Shown here: one piece after another, positions 1-10,185 of the stretch
How positions within the stretch are numbered: position 1 is the first letter of the stretch
How the letters are laid out: every line of letters starts with the position of its first letter
Origin: Phototrophicus methaneseepsis
GTDB taxonomy: Bacteria; Chloroflexota; Anaerolineae; Aggregatilineales; Phototrophicaceae
Assembly (NCBI RefSeq): GCF_015500095.1
Contig: NZ_CP062983.1
Coordinates: forward strand, 4,588,001-4,652,000
DNA: 64,000 nt
Direction of reading: 5' to 3'
Program-made: the position numbers and the translations under genes
Notes under the pieces: generated by a model
Database searches by the model: none
The model's input: the letters and a program-made list of their open reading frames with translations, nothing else
What the model was told of the DNA's origin: nothing

Positions 1-978
1 AGCCGCGAAAGCACCGAGCTTCATCAGCACGCCTGCATGGATCATCGACACAGCCGTTGGTGCCGCCACGTGACCATCTGGTGACCAGTTGTGGAAGGGG
101 AAAACACCTGCCAGGACGGCAAACCCGATGAAGATGAAGGGGAACCAGAATGTACCGAACGTCAGGACATCAATGCCGAAGTAACCACCCACATTGAAAA
201 TACCGTTTTCCGCAGCCAGCGTTAGCTGAACAAGGTTAAAGCTATAGGCCGTTGAGCCTTGCGGCAGCAGGCCGCTTTCGATAGCTGCCTGTAAGATCGC
301 GCTGCCCTGCTCCCCTGTGAAGTACGACCCAGCATAGAAGTACATCGCAACCGCACCAACCAGCGCCACAACGGAGCCGATCAAGATATAGAGCGTTAGC
401 TTCATACTGGCGTATTCACGTAGTTGGACCCAACCCCACCCAGCGATGAGTAGGTACATGGGGAAGATGGCAAGTTCATAAAAGAAGAAGAGCATAAATA
501 AATCGACCGCGACGAACACACCGAGTACGCCCGCCACCAACAGCATGAAGAAGGCCATAAATTCACGGATGCGATCCTGAATATTCCAGGATATAAGCAC
601 ACCCGCGACCGTCACCATACCCGTCAGGAGCACCATGGGGGCACTCAGGCCATCCACACCCACGTGCCACGCGATGCCCAACTGCTCAACCCATATATAT
701 CGCGCCTCAAAGACGAGGGACTCACTAAAGGCCCTGGTCGCCGTACTGGCGCCGATACTCGCATCGAAGGCGGGTTGGCCGGACATAAGGGTGCCCATCG
801 CTACCGCATTGTGATAGCTCAGGAACACCACCAGCGAGAGTGCCAGCAGTGATGCTGCCGCCGTGATCGCAACACCGCGAATAATGTCACGGTTTGCAGC
901 CGGCATAAACAGCAGAACGATACCGGCAATCGTCGGTATGGCGATGATGAGCGATAAAACGTCGAAACCAAAATCCAT
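1..978 (-). CDS. nuoM: NADH-quinone oxidoreductase subunit M, second copy (partial, 3' end outside window)
   Basis: The 326 visible codons run off the left edge. The product is an antiporter-like, proton-pumping membrane subunit of complex I. Direct signs of the NuoM type are VGVDGLSAPMVLLTGMVTV near residue 90, FFFYELAIFPMYLLIAGWGW near residue 145 (the glutamate of FYEL is the conserved TM5 carboxylate), and FPFHNWSPDGHVAAPTAVS followed by MIHAGVLMKLGAFAA at the visible end. These match NuoM rather than NuoN. It begins 5 nt after the stop of another nuoM, with AGGG 7 nt before the ATG. Two consecutive NuoM genes are unusual, because most bacteria have nuoL-M-N. A divergent NuoN is the main alternative, but the FYEL..PMYLLI and MIHAGVLMKLG blocks argue against it. 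Confidence 0.85.
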   Translation of the reverse strand, partial: MDFGFDVLSLIIAIPTIAGIVLLFMPAANRDIIRGVAITAAASLLALSLVVFLSYHNAVAMGTLMSGQPAFDASIGASTATRAFSESLVFEARYIWVEQLGIAWHVGVDGLSAPMVLLTGMVTVAGVLISWNIQDRIREFMAFFMLLVAGVLGVFVAVDLFMLFFFYELAIFPMYLLIAGWGWVQLREYASMKLTLYILIGSVVALVGAVAMYFYAGSYFTGEQGSAILQAAIESGLLPQGSTAYSFNLVQLTLAAENGIFNVGGYFGIDVLTFGTFWFPFIFIGFAVLAGVFPFHNWSPDGHVAAPTAVSMIHAGVLMKLGAFAA

Positions 979-982
979 TCGT

Positions 983-2677
983 TTACCCTATCCCGTTCAT
1001 TATCGCGGTCACACTGCCGTTGATCGTCAACAGAATCCAGTTCGGCAGGATACCTGTAATCAACATCAGGACCAGCAGCGGTGAAATCGCCACCATTTCA
1101 TTGAGGTGCAGTTCCAGGTTGGTGTTGAGCCACTTCATGTTGAAGGGACCATGCAATACAGCGCGGATGCCCTTCAGAATGTAGCTACCTGTGAACAGCA
1201 GGCCGATCATTGAAAGTGCCGTCAACACCGTGAACACCGGCCAAGTGCCGCGCACCACCAGGAATTCACCAATAAAGCCGTTCAGGCCCGGCAAGCCCAG
1301 GCTCGCCATACTGGTGAAGATGAAGATACCACCAAATATTGGGGCACGGACCCACAAGCCACCATACTCGGACATATCGCGCGTATGCGTCTTGTGATAC
1401 AAGCCACCTGCGAGCAAGAACATACCCGCTGCGCTCAGGCCATGGTTGAACATCTGCATGACCGCGCCGTTTGTGGCGATGATGCCCGTCTGGAGCATAT
1501 CCGCGCTCAGGCCAGCCGTTGACTGCTGTGCAGCCTGCCAGGATTCACCATAGAGCAAGGCCATCACCGCAACACCGATGCCGACGAAGCCCATATGATT
1601 GACTGAACTATAAGCAACCAGGCGTTTAATGTCATTCTGGCCGAAGGCTGCGAGCGCCCCAAGGACGATGCCAAGCACAGAAAGAATGGCGAAGATCGTG
1701 GCGAAGTTCATCCCGAAGATCGCTTCGCTGATCCACACATCCGGGAACAGCGGTACCACCAGACGGATGAAGCCATAAGCGCCTAACTTCAGCATGACGC
1801 CAGCCAACAACATGGAGCCAGCCGTAGGCGCTTCACCATGGGCATCTGGCAACCATGTATGGAAGGGCCAGATCGGCACTTTGATGGCGAAGGCGACGAA
1901 GAAGCCGATGAATGCAAGAGCCTTCACCGTCTCAATCGGGATACCCAGGAAGGAAGTCCCCAGGGTGTTGCTGAGCTGCGGCCAGATGACCGAGAGCGCC
2001 TGCATGTTATAAGTATTCATTCCAGCTTCGAAGCCAGGGAGCACGCCCTGAACTTGTGCAGCCATCTCAGGCGAGGCCAGCGACGACGCCCAACCAATGA
2101 GCTGAATCGCGAGCAGCATGCCGAGCGTGCCGCCGATGGAATAAATCATAAACTTGGTTGACGCATATAAGCGTCCGCCCGGGCTACCCCATTGGTTAAT
2201 CAAGAAGTACATGGGGACCAGGCTGAGTTCATAGAACAAGAAGAAGATCATCAAGTCCGTCGTCGCAAAGACGCCCATACTGCCTGCTTCGAACAGGAGC
2301 AGCAGCGCCAGATGGGCTGGCGCACGGTCGCTGACTTCCCAACTCACCAGGATCGCCAACGGCGATAAGATGCCCGTTAGCAAGATCATCGCGGCGCTGA
2401 TACCATCAATGCCGAATGAAATCTGTGAGCCCAGGAGCGCAAACCATGGCTGCGGCTCGCTAAACGTCAAATACCCGTAGCCTACGGACTCCGCGTTGTT
2501 CTGGTAGATAAAGAACACCGCAACCGCCAGCCCCAGCGTCAGCAGGGAAAAAGCCAACGCACCGATGCGCGCTAACCATGTCTGGCGGAAGAAGGCCCCC
2601 ACGACTACGGTTCCCACTGCTGGCAGCAAAATAAGTGCTAGCAGTGGGTCAATGCCGAAAATACTAAAGTCGATCAT
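983..2677 (-). CDS. nuoM: NADH-quinone oxidoreductase subunit M, first copy
   Basis: Encodes 564 residues, slightly longer than typical NuoM (about 500-510). Signature blocks are FGIDGISAAMILLTGILSP (residues ~89-107), FFLFYELSLVPMYFLINQWG (~146-165), WPFHTWLPDAHGEAPTAGS, LLAGVMLKLGAYGFIRLVVP, and the lysine-bearing FGQNDIKRLVAYSSVNHMGF. The product is one of the Mrp-antiporter-like proton channels of the complex I membrane arm. An insertion of about 45 residues after LIGWASS accounts for the extra length. The start ATG is preceded by AGGAG. The gene lies 9 nt after nuoL and 5 nt before a second nuoM-type gene, so all are probably one transcript. Confidence 0.95.
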   Translation of the reverse strand: MIDFSIFGIDPLLALILLPAVGTVVVGAFFRQTWLARIGALAFSLLTLGLAVAVFFIYQNNAESVGYGYLTFSEPQPWFALLGSQISFGIDGISAAMILLTGILSPLAILVSWEVSDRAPAHLALLLLFEAGSMGVFATTDLMIFFLFYELSLVPMYFLINQWGSPGGRLYASTKFMIYSIGGTLGMLLAIQLIGWASSLASPEMAAQVQGVLPGFEAGMNTYNMQALSVIWPQLSNTLGTSFLGIPIETVKALAFIGFFVAFAIKVPIWPFHTWLPDAHGEAPTAGSMLLAGVMLKLGAYGFIRLVVPLFPDVWISEAIFGMNFATIFAILSVLGIVLGALAAFGQNDIKRLVAYSSVNHMGFVGIGVAVMALLYGESWQAAQQSTAGLSADMLQTGIIATNGAVMQMFNHGLSAAGMFLLAGGLYHKTHTRDMSEYGGLWVRAPIFGGIFIFTSMASLGLPGLNGFIGEFLVVRGTWPVFTVLTALSMIGLLFTGSYILKGIRAVLHGPFNMKWLNTNLELHLNEMVAISPLLVLMLITGILPNWILLTINGSVTAIMNGIG

Positions 2678-2686
2678 GCATATCTC

Positions 2687-5110
2687 CTACTGCGCGGCCA
2701 CTGCGCCGCCGGCTGTCAGCGCGAAGAAGAGGCCAATGACCAGGATTGTGATTAGAACAGCCAGCAAATACTGCTGTACGCGCCCGGTTTGCGCGCCGCG
2801 CAGCCAGCCGCCTAGGTCGTAAATTGCTCTCGGGATACCATCACCCACACCATCAATCAACCATTTGTTGAGCACTTTGAATAGATCGCCCAACCAGGTG
2901 AATGCACGTGCGACAAAGTGCAAGAAGCCGTCAATCAGGCCCTTATCAACGAAGACATTGACCTGTTTAGCAACCCACTTCGCCGGTGCCACGAAGAGAA
3001 CACCATACAACTCATCAATATAGTAGCGGCGTTGCAGCGTGGTATACACGGAGCGCCCCAGAATATTGATGAGTGGGTCTTCCTGGCCGACCTGCAAAGG
3101 CTTGCGCCAATACATACGCCAACCCAGCCAGATGCCGCCCAACGCCACCGCGAACGATGTCAACAATGGAATCCAGTTAAACGGCGGGGCATCGACATGG
3201 AAGACTTCATTATGTGGCAGGGCATAAATCACCCAATGATGGAAGAAACTGTGATCCGGCGAGAAGATGCTACCCAGAATCGGGAAGTCCGTCGGCACGC
3301 CGACGAATCCCGCGAACAGGGCAAAGAATGACAGCACAATCAGCGGGAGCTGCATCGTGAAGGACACGACATTGCGCGGGCCACCCAATGTGGCGTGGTC
3401 GGCGGCTTCTGTGCGCGGTGCGCCCCAGAAGGTCAGGCCGATCTGACGCATGGTGTAGAAAGCCGTCAGGAAGGCCGCAATCGCCAGAACGAAGAAGACC
3501 AGTGCATGTGGGCCGAAGCCTTCCATCGTCCCTAACCAGGCATCTGCCAGGATTTCATCCTTCGACCAGAAGCCTGCCGTGATAAGCGGGAAGCCAGAAA
3601 GGGACAAACCACCAATCAAGAAAGTGTAGAAAGTGACGGGGATCTTCTTGGAAAGGCCGCCCATATTGCGCATATCCTGCGGATCGAAAGGCGGCTCCGC
3701 GTGACCGGAAACGCCATGTTCCTCGGCCATATCTTCAGCGGCTTCTTCCGTGCTTTCATCATGTTCATCATGATGGCCGGAATGAAGCGCGTGATGGTGA
3801 TGTTCATGCACGTGATGTTCACCGTGCTCCATGGCATGGATGACGGAGCCAGAAGCCATGAACAACAATGCTTTGAAGAAAGCGTGTGTAATAAGGTGGA
3901 AGGCTGCGGCCACATAAGCGCCGATACCCAATGCAGCCATCATAAAGCCAAGCTGGGAGATTGTCGAATACGCCAGCACAGCTTTAACGTCATTCTGGGC
4001 AACAGCCATCGTCGCTGAGAAGAGCGCCGTAAAGCTGCCAACAATCGCCATCAACAGCAACGGCTGGCTCAGCAAGCCATGATGTGGGTCTGCCGCGCCA
4101 AAGGCATCGCCAGAGCCTACAAAAAGTGGGTACATACGGATAACCGCGTAAATACCAGCGCTCACCATCGCGGCTGCATGGATCATCGCACTAACCGGCG
4201 TCGGGCCTTCCATCGCGTCTGGCAGCCAGACATGCAACGGGAACTGAGCCGATTTACCAATCGTACCGACGATCAGCAGCGTACCAATCAACCCCGCCGC
4301 GCTGAAGCCCCAGCTACCCAGGATAATGGCCGGGGTACCAGCCAGCATCTCTAGAGTGGCTTCATTCATGAGAATGTCGCGGAAGTTAAGCGTGCCCGTC
4401 ATAGCGAAGAGGTAAGCAATACCGAGCAGCATGACCACATCGGCCACGCGCGTGACGGTGAAGGCTTTGATCGCTGCTTTGTAGGCGCTCTCTTTTTCAA
4501 ACCAGAAGCCGATGAGCATATAAGAACACACACCCATGACTTCCCAGCCTGTGAAGAGCACCAGCAAGTTATCAGCAACTGTCAGGGTGAGCATCGCCCC
4601 GGCAAATAAGCTGATCAGTGCGAAGAAACGCGATTGACGCGGATCATTCGCCATATAGCCGATGCTATAGACGAAGATACACAGCACCGCAATCGGGACC
4701 ATCACCAACAAAAGCATATTGAGCGGATCAATCATGACGCCGATACGGAACGGTGTATCGCCTAATGCCATCCACTCAATTGAACTGGCGAATACTTCCT
4801 CGCCGAAGGTCCCGGCGCCAATCGCCAGTGCCTGCCCTACCAGGTTCAAACTGATGAGCAGAGCCGCAACCACACCGCTAATGCCAACAATAATGCTGAC
4901 AACACGGCTCCAATCCGCCACAATCGGCACATCCATGCCGTCATAATCTGGATGATGCCCGCCGTAGTGTTCATCCGTCGCTGGCAACCACTTCGCGCGG
5001 TTTGTCAGCAATGTGATGATGAAGAACGCCAGCAGCGGCCCAAAGGGGATCAGCCAGGGCAGCGTATTGGGGTTGGTAATGTCAATCAGTGGTAGTTCCA
5101 CAAGATTCAT
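2687..5110 (-). CDS. nuoL: NADH-quinone oxidoreductase subunit L with duplicated lateral-helix segment and His-rich insert
   Basis: Encodes 807 residues, much longer than E. coli NuoL (613). The core antiporter fold is clear: FRIGVMIDPLNMLLL, FTGWEVMGVCSYMLIGFWFE, FPLHVWLPDAMEGPTPVSA, MIHAAAMVSAGIYAVIRMYP, and NDVKAVLAYSTISQLGFM. Two departures stand out. A loop at about residues 424-480 is packed with His, Glu and Asp (HEHHHHALHSGHHDEHDE). In the C-terminal lateral amphipathic helix, residues ~720-745 and ~746-771 are tandem copies at exactly 26-residue spacing: LIDG at 725 and 751, and RAFTWLGDLFK against RAIYDLGGWLR. NuoL is the distal pump, and its lateral helix runs along the other antiporter subunits. 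A longer helix fits the second nuoM downstream. The start follows GGATAGGGT. Confidence 0.95.
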   Translation of the reverse strand: MNLVELPLIDITNPNTLPWLIPFGPLLAFFIITLLTNRAKWLPATDEHYGGHHPDYDGMDVPIVADWSRVVSIIVGISGVVAALLISLNLVGQALAIGAGTFGEEVFASSIEWMALGDTPFRIGVMIDPLNMLLLVMVPIAVLCIFVYSIGYMANDPRQSRFFALISLFAGAMLTLTVADNLLVLFTGWEVMGVCSYMLIGFWFEKESAYKAAIKAFTVTRVADVVMLLGIAYLFAMTGTLNFRDILMNEATLEMLAGTPAIILGSWGFSAAGLIGTLLIVGTIGKSAQFPLHVWLPDAMEGPTPVSAMIHAAAMVSAGIYAVIRMYPLFVGSGDAFGAADPHHGLLSQPLLLMAIVGSFTALFSATMAVAQNDVKAVLAYSTISQLGFMMAALGIGAYVAAAFHLITHAFFKALLFMASGSVIHAMEHGEHHVHEHHHHALHSGHHDEHDESTEEAAEDMAEEHGVSGHAEPPFDPQDMRNMGGLSKKIPVTFYTFLIGGLSLSGFPLITAGFWSKDEILADAWLGTMEGFGPHALVFFVLAIAAFLTAFYTMRQIGLTFWGAPRTEAADHATLGGPRNVVSFTMQLPLIVLSFFALFAGFVGVPTDFPILGSIFSPDHSFFHHWVIYALPHNEVFHVDAPPFNWIPLLTSFAVALGGIWLGWRMYWRKPLQVGQEDPLINILGRSVYTTLQRRYYIDELYGVLFVAPAKWVAKQVNVFVDKGLIDGFLHFVARAFTWLGDLFKVLNKWLIDGVGDGIPRAIYDLGGWLRGAQTGRVQQYLLAVLITILVIGLFFALTAGGAVAAQ

Positions 5111-5119
5111 TAAGTCACC

Positions 5120-5455
5120 CTATCCTCTCAACGTATCGGCTTCTTCAGGATCGACCGAGCGCCGATTGCGATAGACCGTAATAATAATCGCGAGGCCGAC
5201 TGCAGCTTCCGCCGCGGCCACGACCAACAAGAAGGCCGCAAAAACAATACCATTTAATTCCGAAGGTGCTGGTTGCGTCAGACTAGCGATCGTCGTGTTA
5301 TAGCGCCAGAACGCCACAGCGTTGATATTGACGGCATTGAGCATCAATTCAATGCTCATTAGCACGGCAACACCATTACGACGCGACAAGACGCCGAACA
5401 CACCCAGGCAAAAGAGCCCTGCGGCTACCGTTAAATACATCCATAAAGGGACCAT
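5120..5455 (-). CDS. nuoK: NADH-quinone oxidoreductase subunit K
   Basis: Encodes 111 residues, close to the usual ~100. Three membrane segments are visible, with the conserved glutamates in VLMSIELMLNAVNIN (TM2) and FLLVVAAAEAAVGLAII (TM3). These form part of the proton path between NuoJ and NuoN in complex I. The ATG overlaps the nuoJ stop by one base (TAATG), implying translational coupling. The C-terminal tail is short and charged (DPEEADTLRG). Confidence 0.97.
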   Translation of the reverse strand: MVPLWMYLTVAAGLFCLGVFGVLSRRNGVAVLMSIELMLNAVNINAVAFWRYNTTIASLTQPAPSELNGIVFAAFLLVVAAAEAAVGLAIIITVYRNRRSVDPEEADTLRG

Positions 5456-5991
5456 TATTCGCCAATCTCCTCTTCGTCCACATCGCGCGCGATGACGATA
5501 GCACCGATCATCGCAGCAGTGAGTAAGAGCGACGCCACCTCAAAGGGCAAGACATACCCTTCACCAGATACAAGTGCCAGGCCGAGGTCGGTTGTATTAC
5601 GCACAACATCCGACGCAGGCACAGCAAAGGCTTCATTCGCGCCAAATACAGGCCAGATCACGCCAACAATGAGCATGGCGAACAGAAGCGCTGCGCCAAT
5701 CGCAGTCGGCCATAAGCGGTTATAACGCGCTGTCAGATGCGTCAGGCTGCGAGTGAGCATCACTGCAAAGGTGAACAAAATGGCAATCGCACCGATGTAA
5801 ACCAACACCTGTACCGCTGCCAGGAACGGCGCACTCAGCAGGACGAAAAGCCCCGCCACACCGAACAAGCTCACCATCAGCCAGATCGTGCCCCGGAACA
5901 GGTTGCGATTCGTCACAACCCCGAAGCCACCACCCAAGGCCAGCAAACTAAAGATAAAAAATGCAATCGCACTAAAATCGATTTGAGACAT
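5455..5991 (-). CDS. nuoJ: NADH-quinone oxidoreductase subunit J
   Basis: Encodes 178 residues with five predicted membrane helices. The family block VQVLVYIGAIAILFTFAVML at about residues 60-80 carries the conserved TM3 region (YIGAI.ILF) with the pi-bulge that moves during turnover. The product is a membrane-arm subunit of complex I linking NuoA/H to NuoK. The start ATG has GGAG 5-6 nt upstream and also lies behind the GGATAGGGT motif seen at two other junctions of this operon. It follows nuoH directly: the nuoI gene normally found between H and J is absent here. Confidence 0.97.
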   Translation of the reverse strand: MSQIDFSAIAFFIFSLLALGGGFGVVTNRNLFRGTIWLMVSLFGVAGLFVLLSAPFLAAVQVLVYIGAIAILFTFAVMLTRSLTHLTARYNRLWPTAIGAALLFAMLIVGVIWPVFGANEAFAVPASDVVRNTTDLGLALVSGEGYVLPFEVASLLLTAAMIGAIVIARDVDEEEIGE

Positions 5992-6009: not shown

Positions 6010-7242
6010 TTAATCGCCAGTGGCCCCGGCAACCGCGCGGCTCGCAGCACGTGCTTCTAATTCAGCACGGCTTTCGTTACCACTACGGCGCAGGCGGTTG
6101 ATAATCGGGATGCAGATCAGCACGTTCGAAAGCAACAGCACTATCGTCATAGGCAGCATTTCTACGAACGTACCCGTTTGCAGGGCCATATTACCCGCTT
6201 CATCGAGCGGTACGAGGCCAATTTCCTTCAGGACCATCACCAGGAAGGAAAGCACCAGCACATTGACAATGGAGATGGGCACTAGGAAGAACCAATTGAA
6301 TTTCATCACCTGGTCAATACGGAAGCGTGGGACCGTATTACGAATCCACAGCGAGACGAAATAGACCAGGGACGCCTTGACGCCCAGCCAGAAGAACGCA
6401 ATCAGCGGTTCCTGCCAGCCTGGGAAGAACCAGCCGCCCATAAAGAGGACCGCAATCAGGACGCCATTGGTGAAGACATGCAAGAACTCCGCAGCGAAGA
6501 ACATGCCGAACTTCATGCCGGAGTACTCAATATTGAAGCCTGCCACCAATTCCGATTCCGCCTCGATTAAGTCGAAGGGTGCACGGCCTGTTTCCGCCTG
6601 GGAAGATATAAAGAAGAGCAGCATCGCCAGCGGCGACATAAAGACAAACCACATCCCGCCCTGGGCATAAACAATATCCAGCATACTCATACTGCCTGCA
6701 AGCAAAACAGGCACCATCAGGGCGAAAACAAGTGGGATTTCATAGCTGACAAGCAGCGCAACGACGCGGAATGCACCGAGCAGCGCGTACTTGTTATTAC
6801 TGGCCCAACCTGCCGTCATGATAGCTAACGTGCCCAGGGACGCCACCGCGACAAAGTACAGCGCGCCAATTTCGAGATCAGCACCGAAGTGATACGGTGT
6901 ATAGGGCACAATCGCCCAGATCAAGGCCACAGAAGCAAATGAAATGAGCGGCGCGACATTGTATAGTAAGCGATCCGCTGCTGTCGGGGTAATGTCTTCT
7001 TTAACAAGCAATTTCAGGAGGTCTGCAAAAGTTTGTACGAGGCCAAAGGGGCCAACGCGGTTCGGACCAATACGGTCCTGGATGCGAGCAGCGATTTTAC
7101 GCTCGACCCAGATGAGGAAGATTACCGTTACAAGAGGTACCCCACTCACCGCAACCACAGCCAGCAGCAGAGACAAAAATTGGGCCAGGCCCACATCTAA
7201 ACCGCTTTGTGCTATTACCTCGCAGAGTCCGGTACAATCCAT
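6010..7242 (-). CDS. nuoH: NADH-quinone oxidoreductase subunit H
   Basis: Encodes 410 residues, longer than E. coli NuoH (325), with extra residues in the N-terminal and C-terminal tails. The diagnostic blocks are intact: FLIWVERKIAARIQDRIGPN (residues ~42-61), FGLVQTFADLLKLLVKED, SLGTLAIMTAGWASNNKYAL, AETGRAPFDLIEAESELVAG (the acidic quinone-site loop) and IRNTVPRFRIDQVMKFNW. The product anchors the peripheral arm and forms the quinone chamber of complex I. The C-terminal tail (ESRAELEARAASRAVAGATGD) is hydrophilic. It starts 33 nt after nuoA ends, in the same transcription unit. Confidence 0.97.
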   Translation of the reverse strand: MDCTGLCEVIAQSGLDVGLAQFLSLLLAVVAVSGVPLVTVIFLIWVERKIAARIQDRIGPNRVGPFGLVQTFADLLKLLVKEDITPTAADRLLYNVAPLISFASVALIWAIVPYTPYHFGADLEIGALYFVAVASLGTLAIMTAGWASNNKYALLGAFRVVALLVSYEIPLVFALMVPVLLAGSMSMLDIVYAQGGMWFVFMSPLAMLLFFISSQAETGRAPFDLIEAESELVAGFNIEYSGMKFGMFFAAEFLHVFTNGVLIAVLFMGGWFFPGWQEPLIAFFWLGVKASLVYFVSLWIRNTVPRFRIDQVMKFNWFFLVPISIVNVLVLSFLVMVLKEIGLVPLDEAGNMALQTGTFVEMLPMTIVLLLSNVLICIPIINRLRRSGNESRAELEARAASRAVAGATGD

Positions 7243-7275: not shown

Positions 7276-7638
7276 TTAGCGCCAGATCAATACGCCTTTA
7301 CGCCAGGCGTAAATCAGGGCATCCGTCAATAAGAAGATGAACAAGAGACCAGCCGCAAAGGCGAAGAAATCTAACTGGTGATAAGCCACAGCCCAGGGGA
7401 ATAAGAAGACCATCTCGACGTCAAAAACCAGAAAGATCAAGCCATAAATATAATACTGGACGCGGAACTGAACCCAGGTATCGCCAACCGTTTCGACACC
7501 GCATTCATACGTCTGGCTTTTAAGTACATTGGGTTTCTTGGGACGCAGTAATGTGGCGACACCGATTGGCAACATCGGCAGAATTGGCGCAAGTAATGCA
7601 AACACACCAATAAACGCCCATTCATTTAATACATTCAT
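7276..7638 (-). CDS. nuoA: NADH-quinone oxidoreductase subunit A
   Basis: Encodes 120 residues with three membrane helices. Family signatures are YECGVETVGDTWVQFRVQYY (residues ~44-63) and the second-helix block LIFLVFDVEMVFLFPWAV, which contains the conserved acidic pair. This is a membrane subunit of complex I at the junction with the quinone site. It is the first gene of the unit, followed by nuoH, whereas nuoB, C, D, E, F, G and I are not in the window. A sigma-70-like promoter lies about 115 bp upstream. Confidence 0.97.
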   Translation of the reverse strand: MNVLNEWAFIGVFALLAPILPMLPIGVATLLRPKKPNVLKSQTYECGVETVGDTWVQFRVQYYIYGLIFLVFDVEMVFLFPWAVAYHQLDFFAFAAGLLFIFLLTDALIYAWRKGVLIWR

Positions 7639-8050
7639 GGAGCAAATACTCCTGACAGAGACGGCTTCCTAAAAATTAAGAGATTTTTGTGCGCTTGGCA
7701 AACGACAATTCCAGCCCAAACGGGGTTTGCGCGATTTCTCACAAACGACATGAGTATAGCATCGTCGAGCGAAGCTAGCAATGGAATGGATGTATCACCA
7801 ACGCACCTAAATCGAATCGGATTGTAGCACAGAGACCTGAAGAAACAAAGCGGTTAAAATAGTGAATCAGGCTATTCTGTACAAATCACTGAGGGCATTT
7901 GCACAACCCCCTACATACGCAAATGAAATCAACAGCCTATTCAAAATTCTAGTCAACGAGCACCCACTGTTGGCCCAGTATAGGCTTGTATTACGACGCA
8001 GCATCGCGTACAAACGAAGCATGGTTCACTTTATGAGCAGGGAACGCCCT
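7639..8050. other. Divergent intergenic region between nuoA and the first FemAB gene
   Basis: About 410 bp separate nuoA from the preferred start of the FemAB gene. The nuo promoter candidate is at 7753-7781. The reading frame of the FemAB gene stays open back to a GTG at 7862. The residues it would add (positively charged, rich in Ala and Leu) have no match to the domain or to the paralogue, so I treat them as untranslated leader. I saw no hairpin terminator or RNA motif. Confidence 0.5.
7753..7781 (-). promoter_or_regulatory. Probable sigma-70 promoter of the nuo operon
   Basis: On the minus strand TTGCTA (4/6 match to -35) is followed after exactly 17 nt by TATACT (5/6 match to -10). It is oriented toward nuoA, with a leader of about 105 nt. 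Confidence 0.5.
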
Positions 8051-9064
8051 ATGTATGATATCCCCACTGCCGCCGAATGGGACGCCTTCGTCACACAGCA
8101 CCCACGCGGACATCTATTGCAACTCAGTGCCTGGGGCGATCTCAAATCAGCTTACGGTTGGGATGCCGGGCGTATCGCCCTGCGCGATGAGGGTCACATT
8201 ATCGCCGGGGCACAAATTCTATTTCGCAAATTGCCCCTGCGTTTGGGGACGATGGCCTATATTCCTTTTGGGGGCTATGTCACGGCAAGTTCGCAGTGGC
8301 CGGCCTTATGGCACGCCATTGATGCGTATTGCCAGGAACAAGGTGCCGCTTTCTTAAAATGGGAGCCAGGGCTTTACCTGGACGATGAACGGCCCGATTT
8401 TGCTGTTTTAGGCTTCCGGGGTAGTCCTCAGACAATCCAGCCCCCCAACACGATCTTGCTAGACATCAGCGATAGCGACGATGACATCATGGCACGCATG
8501 AACCAGGGCACGCGACGTAAAATCCGCAAAAGCCTGAAAAATGACATCCGCTATTATGAAGCTGAGCCGGGGGATGTCACGAAATTCACCAATCTGATGC
8601 ACATTACGGGCGAGCGCAATGAATTCGGCGTACATGAGCCGGATTACTATGCGATGCAATATGACCTCTTCGCTCCGGAACATGCCGCCCTCATCCTGGC
8701 TGAGCACGAAGGACAAACACTCGCCGGGGTATTCGTGTTCGCGGTGGGCGATACAGCCCAATATATTTCCGGCGCATCCTCCAACATCGACCGCAACCTG
8801 ATGGCAAGCTATGGGGTTCAGTGGAAGGCGATTGAGTGGGCGAAGGTCCGTGGCTGCCGCTATTATGACATGTGGGGCATCCCTGATGAGCCAGAAGCCA
8901 CACTAGAAGCCCAATTCCAGGATCGCAGCGATGGTTTGTGGGGCGTCTATGGCTTTAAACGTGGATGGGGCGGCCAAGTCATCCGTTCCGCCGGGGCCTG
9001 GGATATGGTATATAATGCCCTCATCTACCGAGCTTACCTGGCAGCTATCATGCTGCGAGGCTAA
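8051..9064 (+). CDS. FemA/FemB-type peptidoglycan bridge aminoacyltransferase, copy 1
   Basis: Encodes 337 residues from the ATG at 8051. The family transfers amino acids from aminoacyl-tRNA to the peptidoglycan precursor to build interpeptide bridges, acting at the cytoplasmic face of the membrane. The two-lobed GNAT-like fold is supported by HLLQLSAWGDLKSAYGWDAG near the N-terminus, MNQGTRRKIRKSLKNDI mid-protein (the basic segment typical of FemX), and ASSNIDRNLMASYGVQWKAI, YYDMWGIPDEPE and GLWGVYGFKRGWGG near the C-terminus. The start was chosen because AGGGA lies 7 nt upstream and the length then matches the paralogue next door. An in-frame GTG at 7862 and ATGs at 8021 and 8033 are alternatives. 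The amino acid donated cannot be read from the sequence. Confidence 0.88.
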   Translation: MYDIPTAAEWDAFVTQHPRGHLLQLSAWGDLKSAYGWDAGRIALRDEGHIIAGAQILFRKLPLRLGTMAYIPFGGYVTASSQWPALWHAIDAYCQEQGAAFLKWEPGLYLDDERPDFAVLGFRGSPQTIQPPNTILLDISDSDDDIMARMNQGTRRKIRKSLKNDIRYYEAEPGDVTKFTNLMHITGERNEFGVHEPDYYAMQYDLFAPEHAALILAEHEGQTLAGVFVFAVGDTAQYISGASSNIDRNLMASYGVQWKAIEWAKVRGCRYYDMWGIPDEPEATLEAQFQDRSDGLWGVYGFKRGWGGQVIRSAGAWDMVYNALIYRAYLAAIMLRG

Positions 9065-9138: not shown

Positions 9139-10185
9139 ATTACTCTGGAAGCTTATATCATCAAAGATCGTGACGAGTGGAACGACCACTTGCGTGCTAT
9201 GCCCTATTCGCACATCCTGCAAACATGGGAATGGGGCGAATTTAAACACGCCACCGTAAACTGGAAGCCGTTCCGATGGGCCTTCAAACGGAATGAGGAA
9301 TTAGTCGCCATGGCCAGCGTCGGCCAGCGCCGTGTAGGTGCACTCAACGTGCTCTATGCCCCCAAAGGCCCCGTACTCGCCTACGATGATATCCAGCTCG
9401 CGCAGGAGATCATCGGCTGGTTAGAGAAGTGGGCCCGCCGCAAGCGCGCTATCTGGGTCAAAATCGACCCTGATGTACCGCTCGCTACGGGCGTTCCTGG
9501 CGAAGAAGACGATACCCCCTCCACCCTCGGTCAAACATTCAAAGATCTGATTGTCAAACGTCGCTGGCAGTTCAGTAAAGAACAGGTGCAGTTCCGCAAC
9601 ACGATTGTCATCGACTTAAACCAGAGCGAAGAAGACTTGTTCGCCAGTATGAGCCAGAACACCCGTCGCAAAGTGCGCCAGGCTGAAAAGAAAGGCGTAA
9701 CGATCCGCACAGCAGGTATCGATGACCTGCCAATACTCTACGATCTTTACGCCAACACGGGCGAACGTGATGATTTCATCATCCGGCCCTATAACTATTA
9801 CGCCACACTCTGGCGGGACTTCATGGAAGCTGGCTTGGCCCATGCTTTCATCGCAGAGTATGAGCATAAGCCTATTGCACACGTCATTCTGTTTCACTTT
9901 GGCAGCAAATGCTGGTATTTCTATGGAGCCTCTTCTAATGAAGAGCGCCAGCGTATGCCGAATTACGCTCTACAATGGAAAGCGATCCAATGGGCCAAAG
10001 CCCAGGGCTACGCCGCTTATGATATGTGGGGTGCGCCAGATGAATTCGACGAGAGCGACGGCATGTGGGGCGTCTATGAATTCAAACGAGGCTTTAGAGG
10101 CACAGTTGTACGCCATATTGGCGCATGGGATTACAGTCCCTTCCGTCCACTATACGCCCTCTATAACCGGACGCGCAGTCGTTAG
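9139..10185 (+). CDS. FemA/FemB-type peptidoglycan bridge aminoacyltransferase, copy 2 (apparent AUU start)
   Basis: Encodes about 348 residues. It parallels copy 1 block by block: SHILQTWEWGEFKHATVNW, MSQNTRRKVRQAEKKGV, GASSNEERQRMPNYALQWKA, YDMWGAPDEFDESDGMWGVY, FKRGFRG. The first ATG or TTG in frame (TTG 9190) would cut away DRDEWNDHLRA, which aligns with TAAEWDAFVTQ of copy 1. The frame is open upstream to 9082 but has no ATG, GTG or TTG there. AGGAG at 9126-9130 sits 8 nt before an ATT codon at 9139, so AUU initiation is the best fit, with CTG at 9145 second. It follows copy 1 by 74 nt on the same strand and is probably co-transcribed. Use of a near-cognate start implies weak or regulated initiation. 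Confidence 0.85.
   Translation: MTLEAYIIKDRDEWNDHLRAMPYSHILQTWEWGEFKHATVNWKPFRWAFKRNEELVAMASVGQRRVGALNVLYAPKGPVLAYDDIQLAQEIIGWLEKWARRKRAIWVKIDPDVPLATGVPGEEDDTPSTLGQTFKDLIVKRRWQFSKEQVQFRNTIVIDLNQSEEDLFASMSQNTRRKVRQAEKKGVTIRTAGIDDLPILYDLYANTGERDDFIIRPYNYYATLWRDFMEAGLAHAFIAEYEHKPIAHVILFHFGSKCWYFYGASSNEERQRMPNYALQWKAIQWAKAQGYAAYDMWGAPDEFDESDGMWGVYEFKRGFRGTVVRHIGAWDYSPFRPLYALYNRTRSR

What the first reader, a model, noticed from the sequence alone, without database searches (positions are those of the whole stretch)
1..5110. Complex I with two NuoM subunits and a lengthened NuoL lateral helix
Two adjacent genes (983-2677 and 978 leftward) both carry NuoM-type blocks. In NuoL the C-terminal lateral helix contains a 26-residue tandem duplication (LIDG at residues 725 and 751; RAFTWLGDLFK against RAIYDLGGWLR). 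The lateral helix spans the antiporter subunits, so an extra segment is what a second NuoM would need. I recall that so-called 2M complex I types with an extra NuoM and an inserted NuoL helix segment were proposed from genome surveys, in Nitrospira among others. Finding both changes together here suggests a complex with one more pumping module, perhaps for low-energy quinones or reverse electron flow.
Basis: partly seen in the sequence, partly recalled or inferred. Interest (0 to 1): 0.75.

Follow-up and report, generated by a model that had tools for sequence, protein, structure and literature searches.

The report
Chloroflexota complex I, four antiporter subunits
The window holds part of a known bacterial energy enzyme (complex I) that carries one extra pump-like subunit; that extra subunit lacks a lysine that ordinary complex I needs to work, so whether it really pumps one more proton is an open and testable question.

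Summary
Confirmed: the window carries nuoA-H-J-K-L-M1 and the start of a second nuoM (M2); the genome continues M2, then nuoN. Both M proteins are NuoM by profile and tree, and NuoL's lateral-helix region is about 26 residues longer than usual. This is the "2M" complex I already described for Chloroflexota (passages in PMC7117926, PMC8004040, PMC3150298), so the locus is a new member of a known kind. (1) The long lateral helix is not exclusive to 2M operons: it also occurs beside a single NuoM, including in this genome's own second complex I. (2) In every M2 examined (98; more) the TM7 lysine (E. coli NuoM K234; the Paracoccus equivalent is called essential in PMC9802314) is Leu, Thr or Met, and a NuoL-like TM8 histidine is gained in 96 of 98. 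All 92 M1 and 42 single NuoM examined keep the lysine. M2 is conserved and under purifying selection, so it probably works, but with a rewired gate. A fifth pumped proton is therefore unproven. I could not read the founding paper to see whether it noted the lysine.

The parts
1..978 (-). nuoM2, first 326 of 573 codons (the whole gene is L013:7258-8979, nuoN is L013:5713-7257, both reaching outside the window). Extra antiporter-like subunit.
   Evidence: TIGR01972 414.2 bits; own clade in the tree, SH-aLRT 99
112..114 (-). M2 codon 289 (Leu), the place of the TM7 lysine (E. coli NuoM K234)
37..39 (-). M2 codon 314 (His in TM8; mostly Leu in M1 and in single NuoM; one alignment column from the TM8 His of NuoL)
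983..2677 (-). nuoM1, 564 aa, keeps TM5 Glu, TM7 Lys, TM8 Lys, TM12 Glu
2687..5110 (-). nuoL, 807 aa
   Evidence: AlphaFold2 mean pLDDT 77.9
2798..3025 (-). lateral helix of NuoL (residues 696-771, one helix in the model, low confidence there)
2876..2953 (-). first 26-residue unit (residues 720-745)
2798..2875 (-). second 26-residue unit (residues 746-771), 9 of 26 identical to the first
5120..5455 (-). nuoK, 111 aa (named by reading and place; not run against a profile library)
   Evidence: kept in the same place in relatives
5455..5991 (-). nuoJ, 178 aa
   Evidence: NF005168 115.6 bits, under its cut-off of 154
6010..7242 (-). nuoH, 410 aa
   Evidence: NF004741 328.5 bits, over its cut-off of 305
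7276..7638 (-). nuoA, 120 aa
   Evidence: NF005839 121.1 bits, under its cut-off of 163

Best explanation
This is the membrane arm of a Chloroflexota-type 2M complex I, gene order A-H-J-K-L-M1-M2-N. M2 is a real fourth antiporter-like subunit, most likely placed between M1 and N, with NuoL's lengthened lateral helix strapping four subunits. M2 keeps the main proton wire (TM5 Glu, a TM8 Lys, two His, TM12 Glu) in most lineages but has lost the TM7 lysine of the Glu-Lys gate and gained a TM8 histidine of NuoL type. I think it still carries charge or protons, but under altered gating, so the H+/2e- ratio cannot be read off the subunit count. Shown: gene content, order, the residue changes, purifying selection. 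Inferred: incorporation, position in the complex, the role of the histidine, any proton count.
For: Of 80 related loci, 63 show the full order A-H-J-K-L-M1-M2-N as single frames; M1 stands directly before M2 in 76 of 76 loci that hold both, and N directly after M2 in 77 of 77. M1 and M2 are each one clade, SH-aLRT 99, each found in the window's class and in genomes of another class. 2M NuoL spacing is 74-75 in 71 of 71 measurable loci and 73-77 in 17 further 2M loci. TM7 Lys: 0 of 98 M2 (96 Leu, 1 Met, 1 Thr), 92 of 92 M1, 42 of 42 single NuoM; TM8 His in 96 of 98 M2. M2 mean pairwise identity 0.741 over 64 loci against 0.700 (M1), 0.711 (L), 0.653 (N); dN/dS 0.069 against L046 (M1 0.058, L 0.093, N 0.099). 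M2 model matches NuoM-type chains first, TM 0.81 by query length. Paper passages: K232 essential (PMC9802314); the ion pair gates proton transfer (PMC11496545).
Against: The long lateral helix also occurs outside 2M operons (10 of 43 such NuoL rows, E. coli included; and L208), so it does not prove incorporation. The helix is modelled with block pLDDT of 48-68. In 10 of the 15 M2 the TM8 Lys is displaced by one residue, and in 5 of them H348 is Gly. I saw no chain titled as a 2M complex among the 50 best structure matches shown for each model. If the TM7 lysine is indispensable in every antiporter subunit, M2 may carry no protons at all.
Confidence: 0.55

Rival explanations
1. M2 is a full fourth pump with canonical chemistry, so the complex moves five protons per two electrons (the view credited to Chadwick et al. 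2018 in the passages read).
For: TM5 Glu in 98, TM8 Lys in 97 and TM12 Glu in 97 (one gap) of 98 M2; M2 is conserved; an extra proton for the extra NuoM is cited in PMC7117926, PMC8004040 and PMC6606698 (passages).
Against: TM7 Lys is absent in every M2 examined, and its equivalent is called essential for catalysis in ordinary NuoM (PMC9802314).
Confidence: 0.2
2. M2 is a non-pumping spacer or relay that transmits the coupling signal and lengthens the arm.
For: Loss of the gate lysine in all M2 examined; in 10 of 15 M2 the TM8 Lys is displaced by one position (LKN or LKA in place of MKL) and in 5 of these H348 is Gly; some kin have the long-helix NuoL and an M1-type NuoM without M2 (L147, L148, L208).
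Against: The other axis residues are kept in most lineages and M2 is better conserved than L, M1 and N; a mere spacer would be expected to lose more of them.
Confidence: 0.2
3. M2 is made but is not part of this complex; the long lateral helix is an unrelated NuoL trait.
For: NuoL beside a single NuoM also can have the long helix.
Against: M1-M2 and M2-N order is the same in every related locus that shows both genes (76 and 77 loci); every 2M locus measured has the long spacing.
Confidence: 0.05

Closest known systems
2M complex I of Chloroflexota (Chadwick et al. 2018, not held; described in passages of PMC7117926, PMC8004040, PMC3150298)
   Same: Second nuoM between nuoM1 and nuoN (as in C. 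aggregans); nuoB, fused nuoCD and nuoI elsewhere (L191; PMC7117926); no nuoEFG beside the operon.
   Different: Nothing found that sets this locus apart; the passages read do not mention the TM7 lysine.
Nitrospira 2M complex I (clade 3; PMC6606698 and PMC9040806, passages)
   Same: Second NuoM and lengthened NuoL; PMC9040806 reports a 26-residue insert in MrpD2 of Manganitrophaceae and one of similar length in Nitrospira NuoL.
   Different: The N. moscoviensis cluster lacks nuoE, F and H; the operon here has nuoH. No Nitrospira sequence was compared here.
Ordinary complex I NuoM (E. coli b2277)
   Same: Antiporter fold, TM5 Glu, TM8 Lys, TM12 Glu.
   Different: M2 has Leu for K234 and His for L259.

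Membership tests
2M complex I | two NuoM genes beside nuoL and nuoN | tested here: met
2M complex I | lengthened NuoL lateral helix | tested here: met
   Spacing 74 against 44-49; not exclusive to 2M operons
2M complex I, Chloroflexota type | nuoB, fused nuoCD and nuoI away from the operon | tested here: met
   L191: PF01058, PF00329+PF00346 in one ORF, and a Fer4 protein taken for NuoI; that they serve this complex is inferred
2M complex I | fourth subunit incorporated and pumping a fifth proton | not testable with these tools
   Needs biochemistry; loss of the TM7 Lys speaks against canonical pumping
NuoM (ND4) | TM7 lysine of the Glu-Lys gate | tested here: not met
   M2 has Leu289; M1 has Lys266
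NuoM (ND4) | profile, fold and tree placement | tested here: met

The most novel reading that the evidence does not exclude
Across Chloroflexota the extra NuoM is a distinct antiporter-like class, with the TM7 gate lysine lost and a NuoL-like TM8 histidine gained, that works without the Glu-Lys switch held to be essential in ordinary complex I; so the 2M complex is a natural experiment against, or beyond, the five-proton model.
Probability: 0.4. Interest if true: 0.7.

Novelty: new member of a known kind. Interest (0 to 1): 0.42.

Why it matters
How many protons complex I pumps per subunit, and whether the Glu-Lys ion pair is the switch, are disputed. A conserved fourth antiporter-like subunit lacking that lysine in every copy examined gives a natural test, and it cautions against counting pumps from subunit number or lateral-helix length.

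Tried and rejected
NuoN misread as NuoM: rejected. Recent duplication of M1 as the source of M2: rejected, since M2 is a deep separate clade and M1 is sister to single NuoM of L128, L147 and L148 (quick tree, SH-aLRT only, long branches flagged). Decay of M2 as a pseudogene: rejected (dN/dS 0.069 on one pair; M2 is one frame in all 80 loci, some cut by contig ends). Long lateral helix as an exclusive mark of 2M: rejected. Loss of the TM8 Lys in the G003 family: first read as Ala, then seen as a one-residue displacement (LKA). A second NuoM elsewhere in six long-helix single-NuoM genomes: beyond their L, M and N genes G157 and G033 have one weak PF00361 frame each (75.7 and 55.9 bits); G037 has one more strong frame (C19:69312, 568 aa) and a weak one; G153 has three and G171 and G238 two further frames each. 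I classified none of these. G033 and G037 show no match better than 37% to M2 among the rows listed; G157 was not in that sample. An amphipathicity profile of the lateral helix did not separate the cases and is not used.

Full report
What is there. The window is bases 4588001-4652000 of a 5.63 Mb, one-contig genome. On the minus strand it carries nuoA (7276-7638), nuoH (6010-7242), nuoJ (5455-5991), nuoK (5120-5455), nuoL (2687-5110), nuoM1 (983-2677) and the first 326 codons of a second nuoM (978 leftward). In the genome the second nuoM is 573 aa and nuoN follows at once, then ATP synthase genes. NCBIfam names M1 and M2 NDH_I_M (440.5 and 414.2 bits, cut-off 263.8) and the next gene NuoN (394.5 bits, cut-off 332.6).

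The genome has a second, separate complex I: L014 holds E, F, G, H, I, J, K, L, M, N (F by PF01512, L, M, N, H and J, the others by reading), with B, C and D just upstream (D by PF00346, B and C by reading). A NuoB, a fused NuoCD and a Fer4 protein that I take for NuoI lie together at about 3.49 Mb, the arrangement PMC7117926 describes for Chloroflexota 2M complexes (passage). One NuoF gene was found in the genome, in the other complex I, so the electron donor of the 2M complex is unknown.

How common. A scan of named genome contigs with M2 found 101 relatives and kept the best 80 as loci; 79 bear titles of the Chloroflexota (Chloroflexi, Anaerolineae and the like) and one (L108) a cyanobacterial name. 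Of the 80, 63 show A-H-J-K-L-M1-M2-N as single frames; of the other 17, 15 lack genes at one end of the stretch, L110 has a split nuoL, and L124 has split frames and shows no nuoK (L117 has both a short end and a split nuoH). M1 stands directly before M2 in 76 of 76 loci that hold both and N directly after M2 in 77 of 77. C. aggregans has the extra nuoM between nuoM1 and nuoN and transcribes the set (PMC8004040, passages); C. aurantiacus has duplicated nuoM genes (PMC3150298, passages).

Tree. Of 109 NuoM and NuoN rows (quick IQ-TREE, SH-aLRT only, several long branches flagged), M1 (32 rows) and M2 (32 rows) are each one side of a branch with 99 support; the single NuoM of long-helix operons L128, L147 and L148 are sister to M1 (99). 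The NuoL tree, built without the last 130 residues, puts L147 outside the 2M NuoL (97) and L128 and L148 inside (87). So M2 was perhaps lost in L128 and L148, or the long helix came first; I cannot decide.

Lateral helix. I measured residues between the DELY and QTG anchors on an alignment with E. coli NuoL. The 71 measurable loci of L046-L125 gave 74 (41) or 75 (30). In the 60 regions that I chose across the phylum, plus this genome and E. coli, 17 further 2M loci gave 73-77, and 33 NuoL outside 2M operons gave 44-49 (E. coli 44; L178 shows no NuoM in its stretch). But ten NuoL beside a single NuoM gave 73-78: L014 (own canonical), L128, L129, L131, L134, L147, L148, L154, L155, L172. L156 was cut and dropped; L140 (72) is cut after NuoL. 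In 16 more regions the twelve NuoL seen gave 72-74 by a simpler count, eleven of them with M2; the other, L208, has M1 followed by unrelated genes up to the contig end, with no M2 or N. The AlphaFold2 model of NuoL (mean pLDDT 77.9) has one helix at 696-771, with block pLDDT of 48-68 there. Of 16 rows tested singly, a repeat at offset 26 is clear in L147 (score 61) and L128 (48), present in the window, L125 and L148 (28-30), weak in L141 and L145, and absent in L127, L130 and L139. PMC9040806 likewise reports such inserts in NuoL of other complex I types of Manganitrophaceae (passage).

The missing lysine. At the position of E. coli NuoM K234 the window M2 has Leu289. Leu in 80 and Met in 1 of 81 M2; M1 has Lys in 77 of 78, one gap. 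Leu 25, Thr 5 of 30 M2 across the class (own included); 98 M2 have Leu 96, Met 1, Thr 1; 92 of 92 M1 and 42 of 42 single NuoM (E. coli and the own canonical one included) have Lys; all of 15 M2 rows have Leu (six are genomes already). These sets overlap and are not to be added. In the 98, TM5 Glu is in 98, TM8 Lys in 97, TM12 Glu in 97 (one gap), H322 in 98, H348 in 97. Against a simple picture: in 10 of the 15 rows the TM8 Lys is displaced by one residue (LKN, LKA), and in 5 of these H348 is Gly. Other M2-specific changes lie at TM7 and TM8: Pro236 to Gly, Leu244 to Ser, Ala247 to Gly, Glu250 to Ala, Leu259 to His (letters of the M1 and single-NuoM consensus, E. coli numbering); the His is in 96 of 98 (two Leu) and 15 of 15. 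In an L/M/N alignment it lies one column from the TM8 His of NuoL.

M2 is not decaying: mean pairwise identity 0.741 over 64 loci, above L (0.711), M1 (0.700) and N (0.653), below A (0.747) and K (0.757); dN/dS 0.069 against L046 (one pair, Nei-Gojobori, dS 1.14; M1 0.058). Its model (L046, mean pLDDT 84.6) matches NuoM-type chains first (8e9i_M, TM 0.81 by query length).

Why it matters for mechanism. PMC9802314 (passages) states that E141, K232 and E405 of the Paracoccus NuoM equivalent are essential for catalysis, and that the lateral helix has a purely structural role. PMC11496545 (passages) describes the Glu-Lys ion pair as controlling proton transfer from some distance off the main path. 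M2 keeps the path in most lineages and loses one half of the pair. So it may conduct under other control, or only relay; a fifth proton does not follow.

In print. In the listings and in the passages that I opened, nothing mentions the lysine loss in M2; I did not read those papers whole, and Chadwick et al. 2018 is not held, so it may be there. That TM12 Glu is special to NuoM is from PMC7419157 (passages). E. coli residue numbers E144, K234, K265, H322, H348 and E407 are recalled and fit the E. coli sequence.

Noticed in passing
L014:7991-9439 (own genome, C1 about 2.438 Mb): The NuoJ of the other complex I is 482 aa and carries a DUF4397 domain (47.7 bits, residues 128-244) inside the NuoJ sequence.
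   Followed up: no
L013:2344-3228 and 3553-5184: ATP synthase genes follow nuoN; one joins a b-subunit domain and part of a delta (OSCP) domain, and the a subunit is 543 aa with a long acidic insert.
   Followed up: no
L014:9842-12499: The own canonical NuoL (885 aa) has a long acidic insert in mid-protein and a lateral-helix region about 29 residues longer than usual beside only one NuoM.
   Followed up: partly
L154, L155, L172 (small genomes of 1.5-1.8 Mb, one contig each): Single-NuoM operons with spacing 78 in NuoL; L154 and L172 show a repeat at offset 29 in the lateral helix.
   Followed up: partly
L208 (G101:C136): A long-spacing NuoL and an M1-type NuoM are followed by unrelated genes instead of M2 and N.
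   Followed up: partly
window 7862-9064: A FemAB-family protein (148.5 bits) divergent from the nuo operon; 9190-10185 looks like a second one by reading.
   Followed up: no
L108 (contig titled Pleurocapsa minor): A contig named as a cyanobacterium carries the Chloroflexota 2M operon at 68% identity in M2; the name or the bin may be wrong.
   Followed up: no
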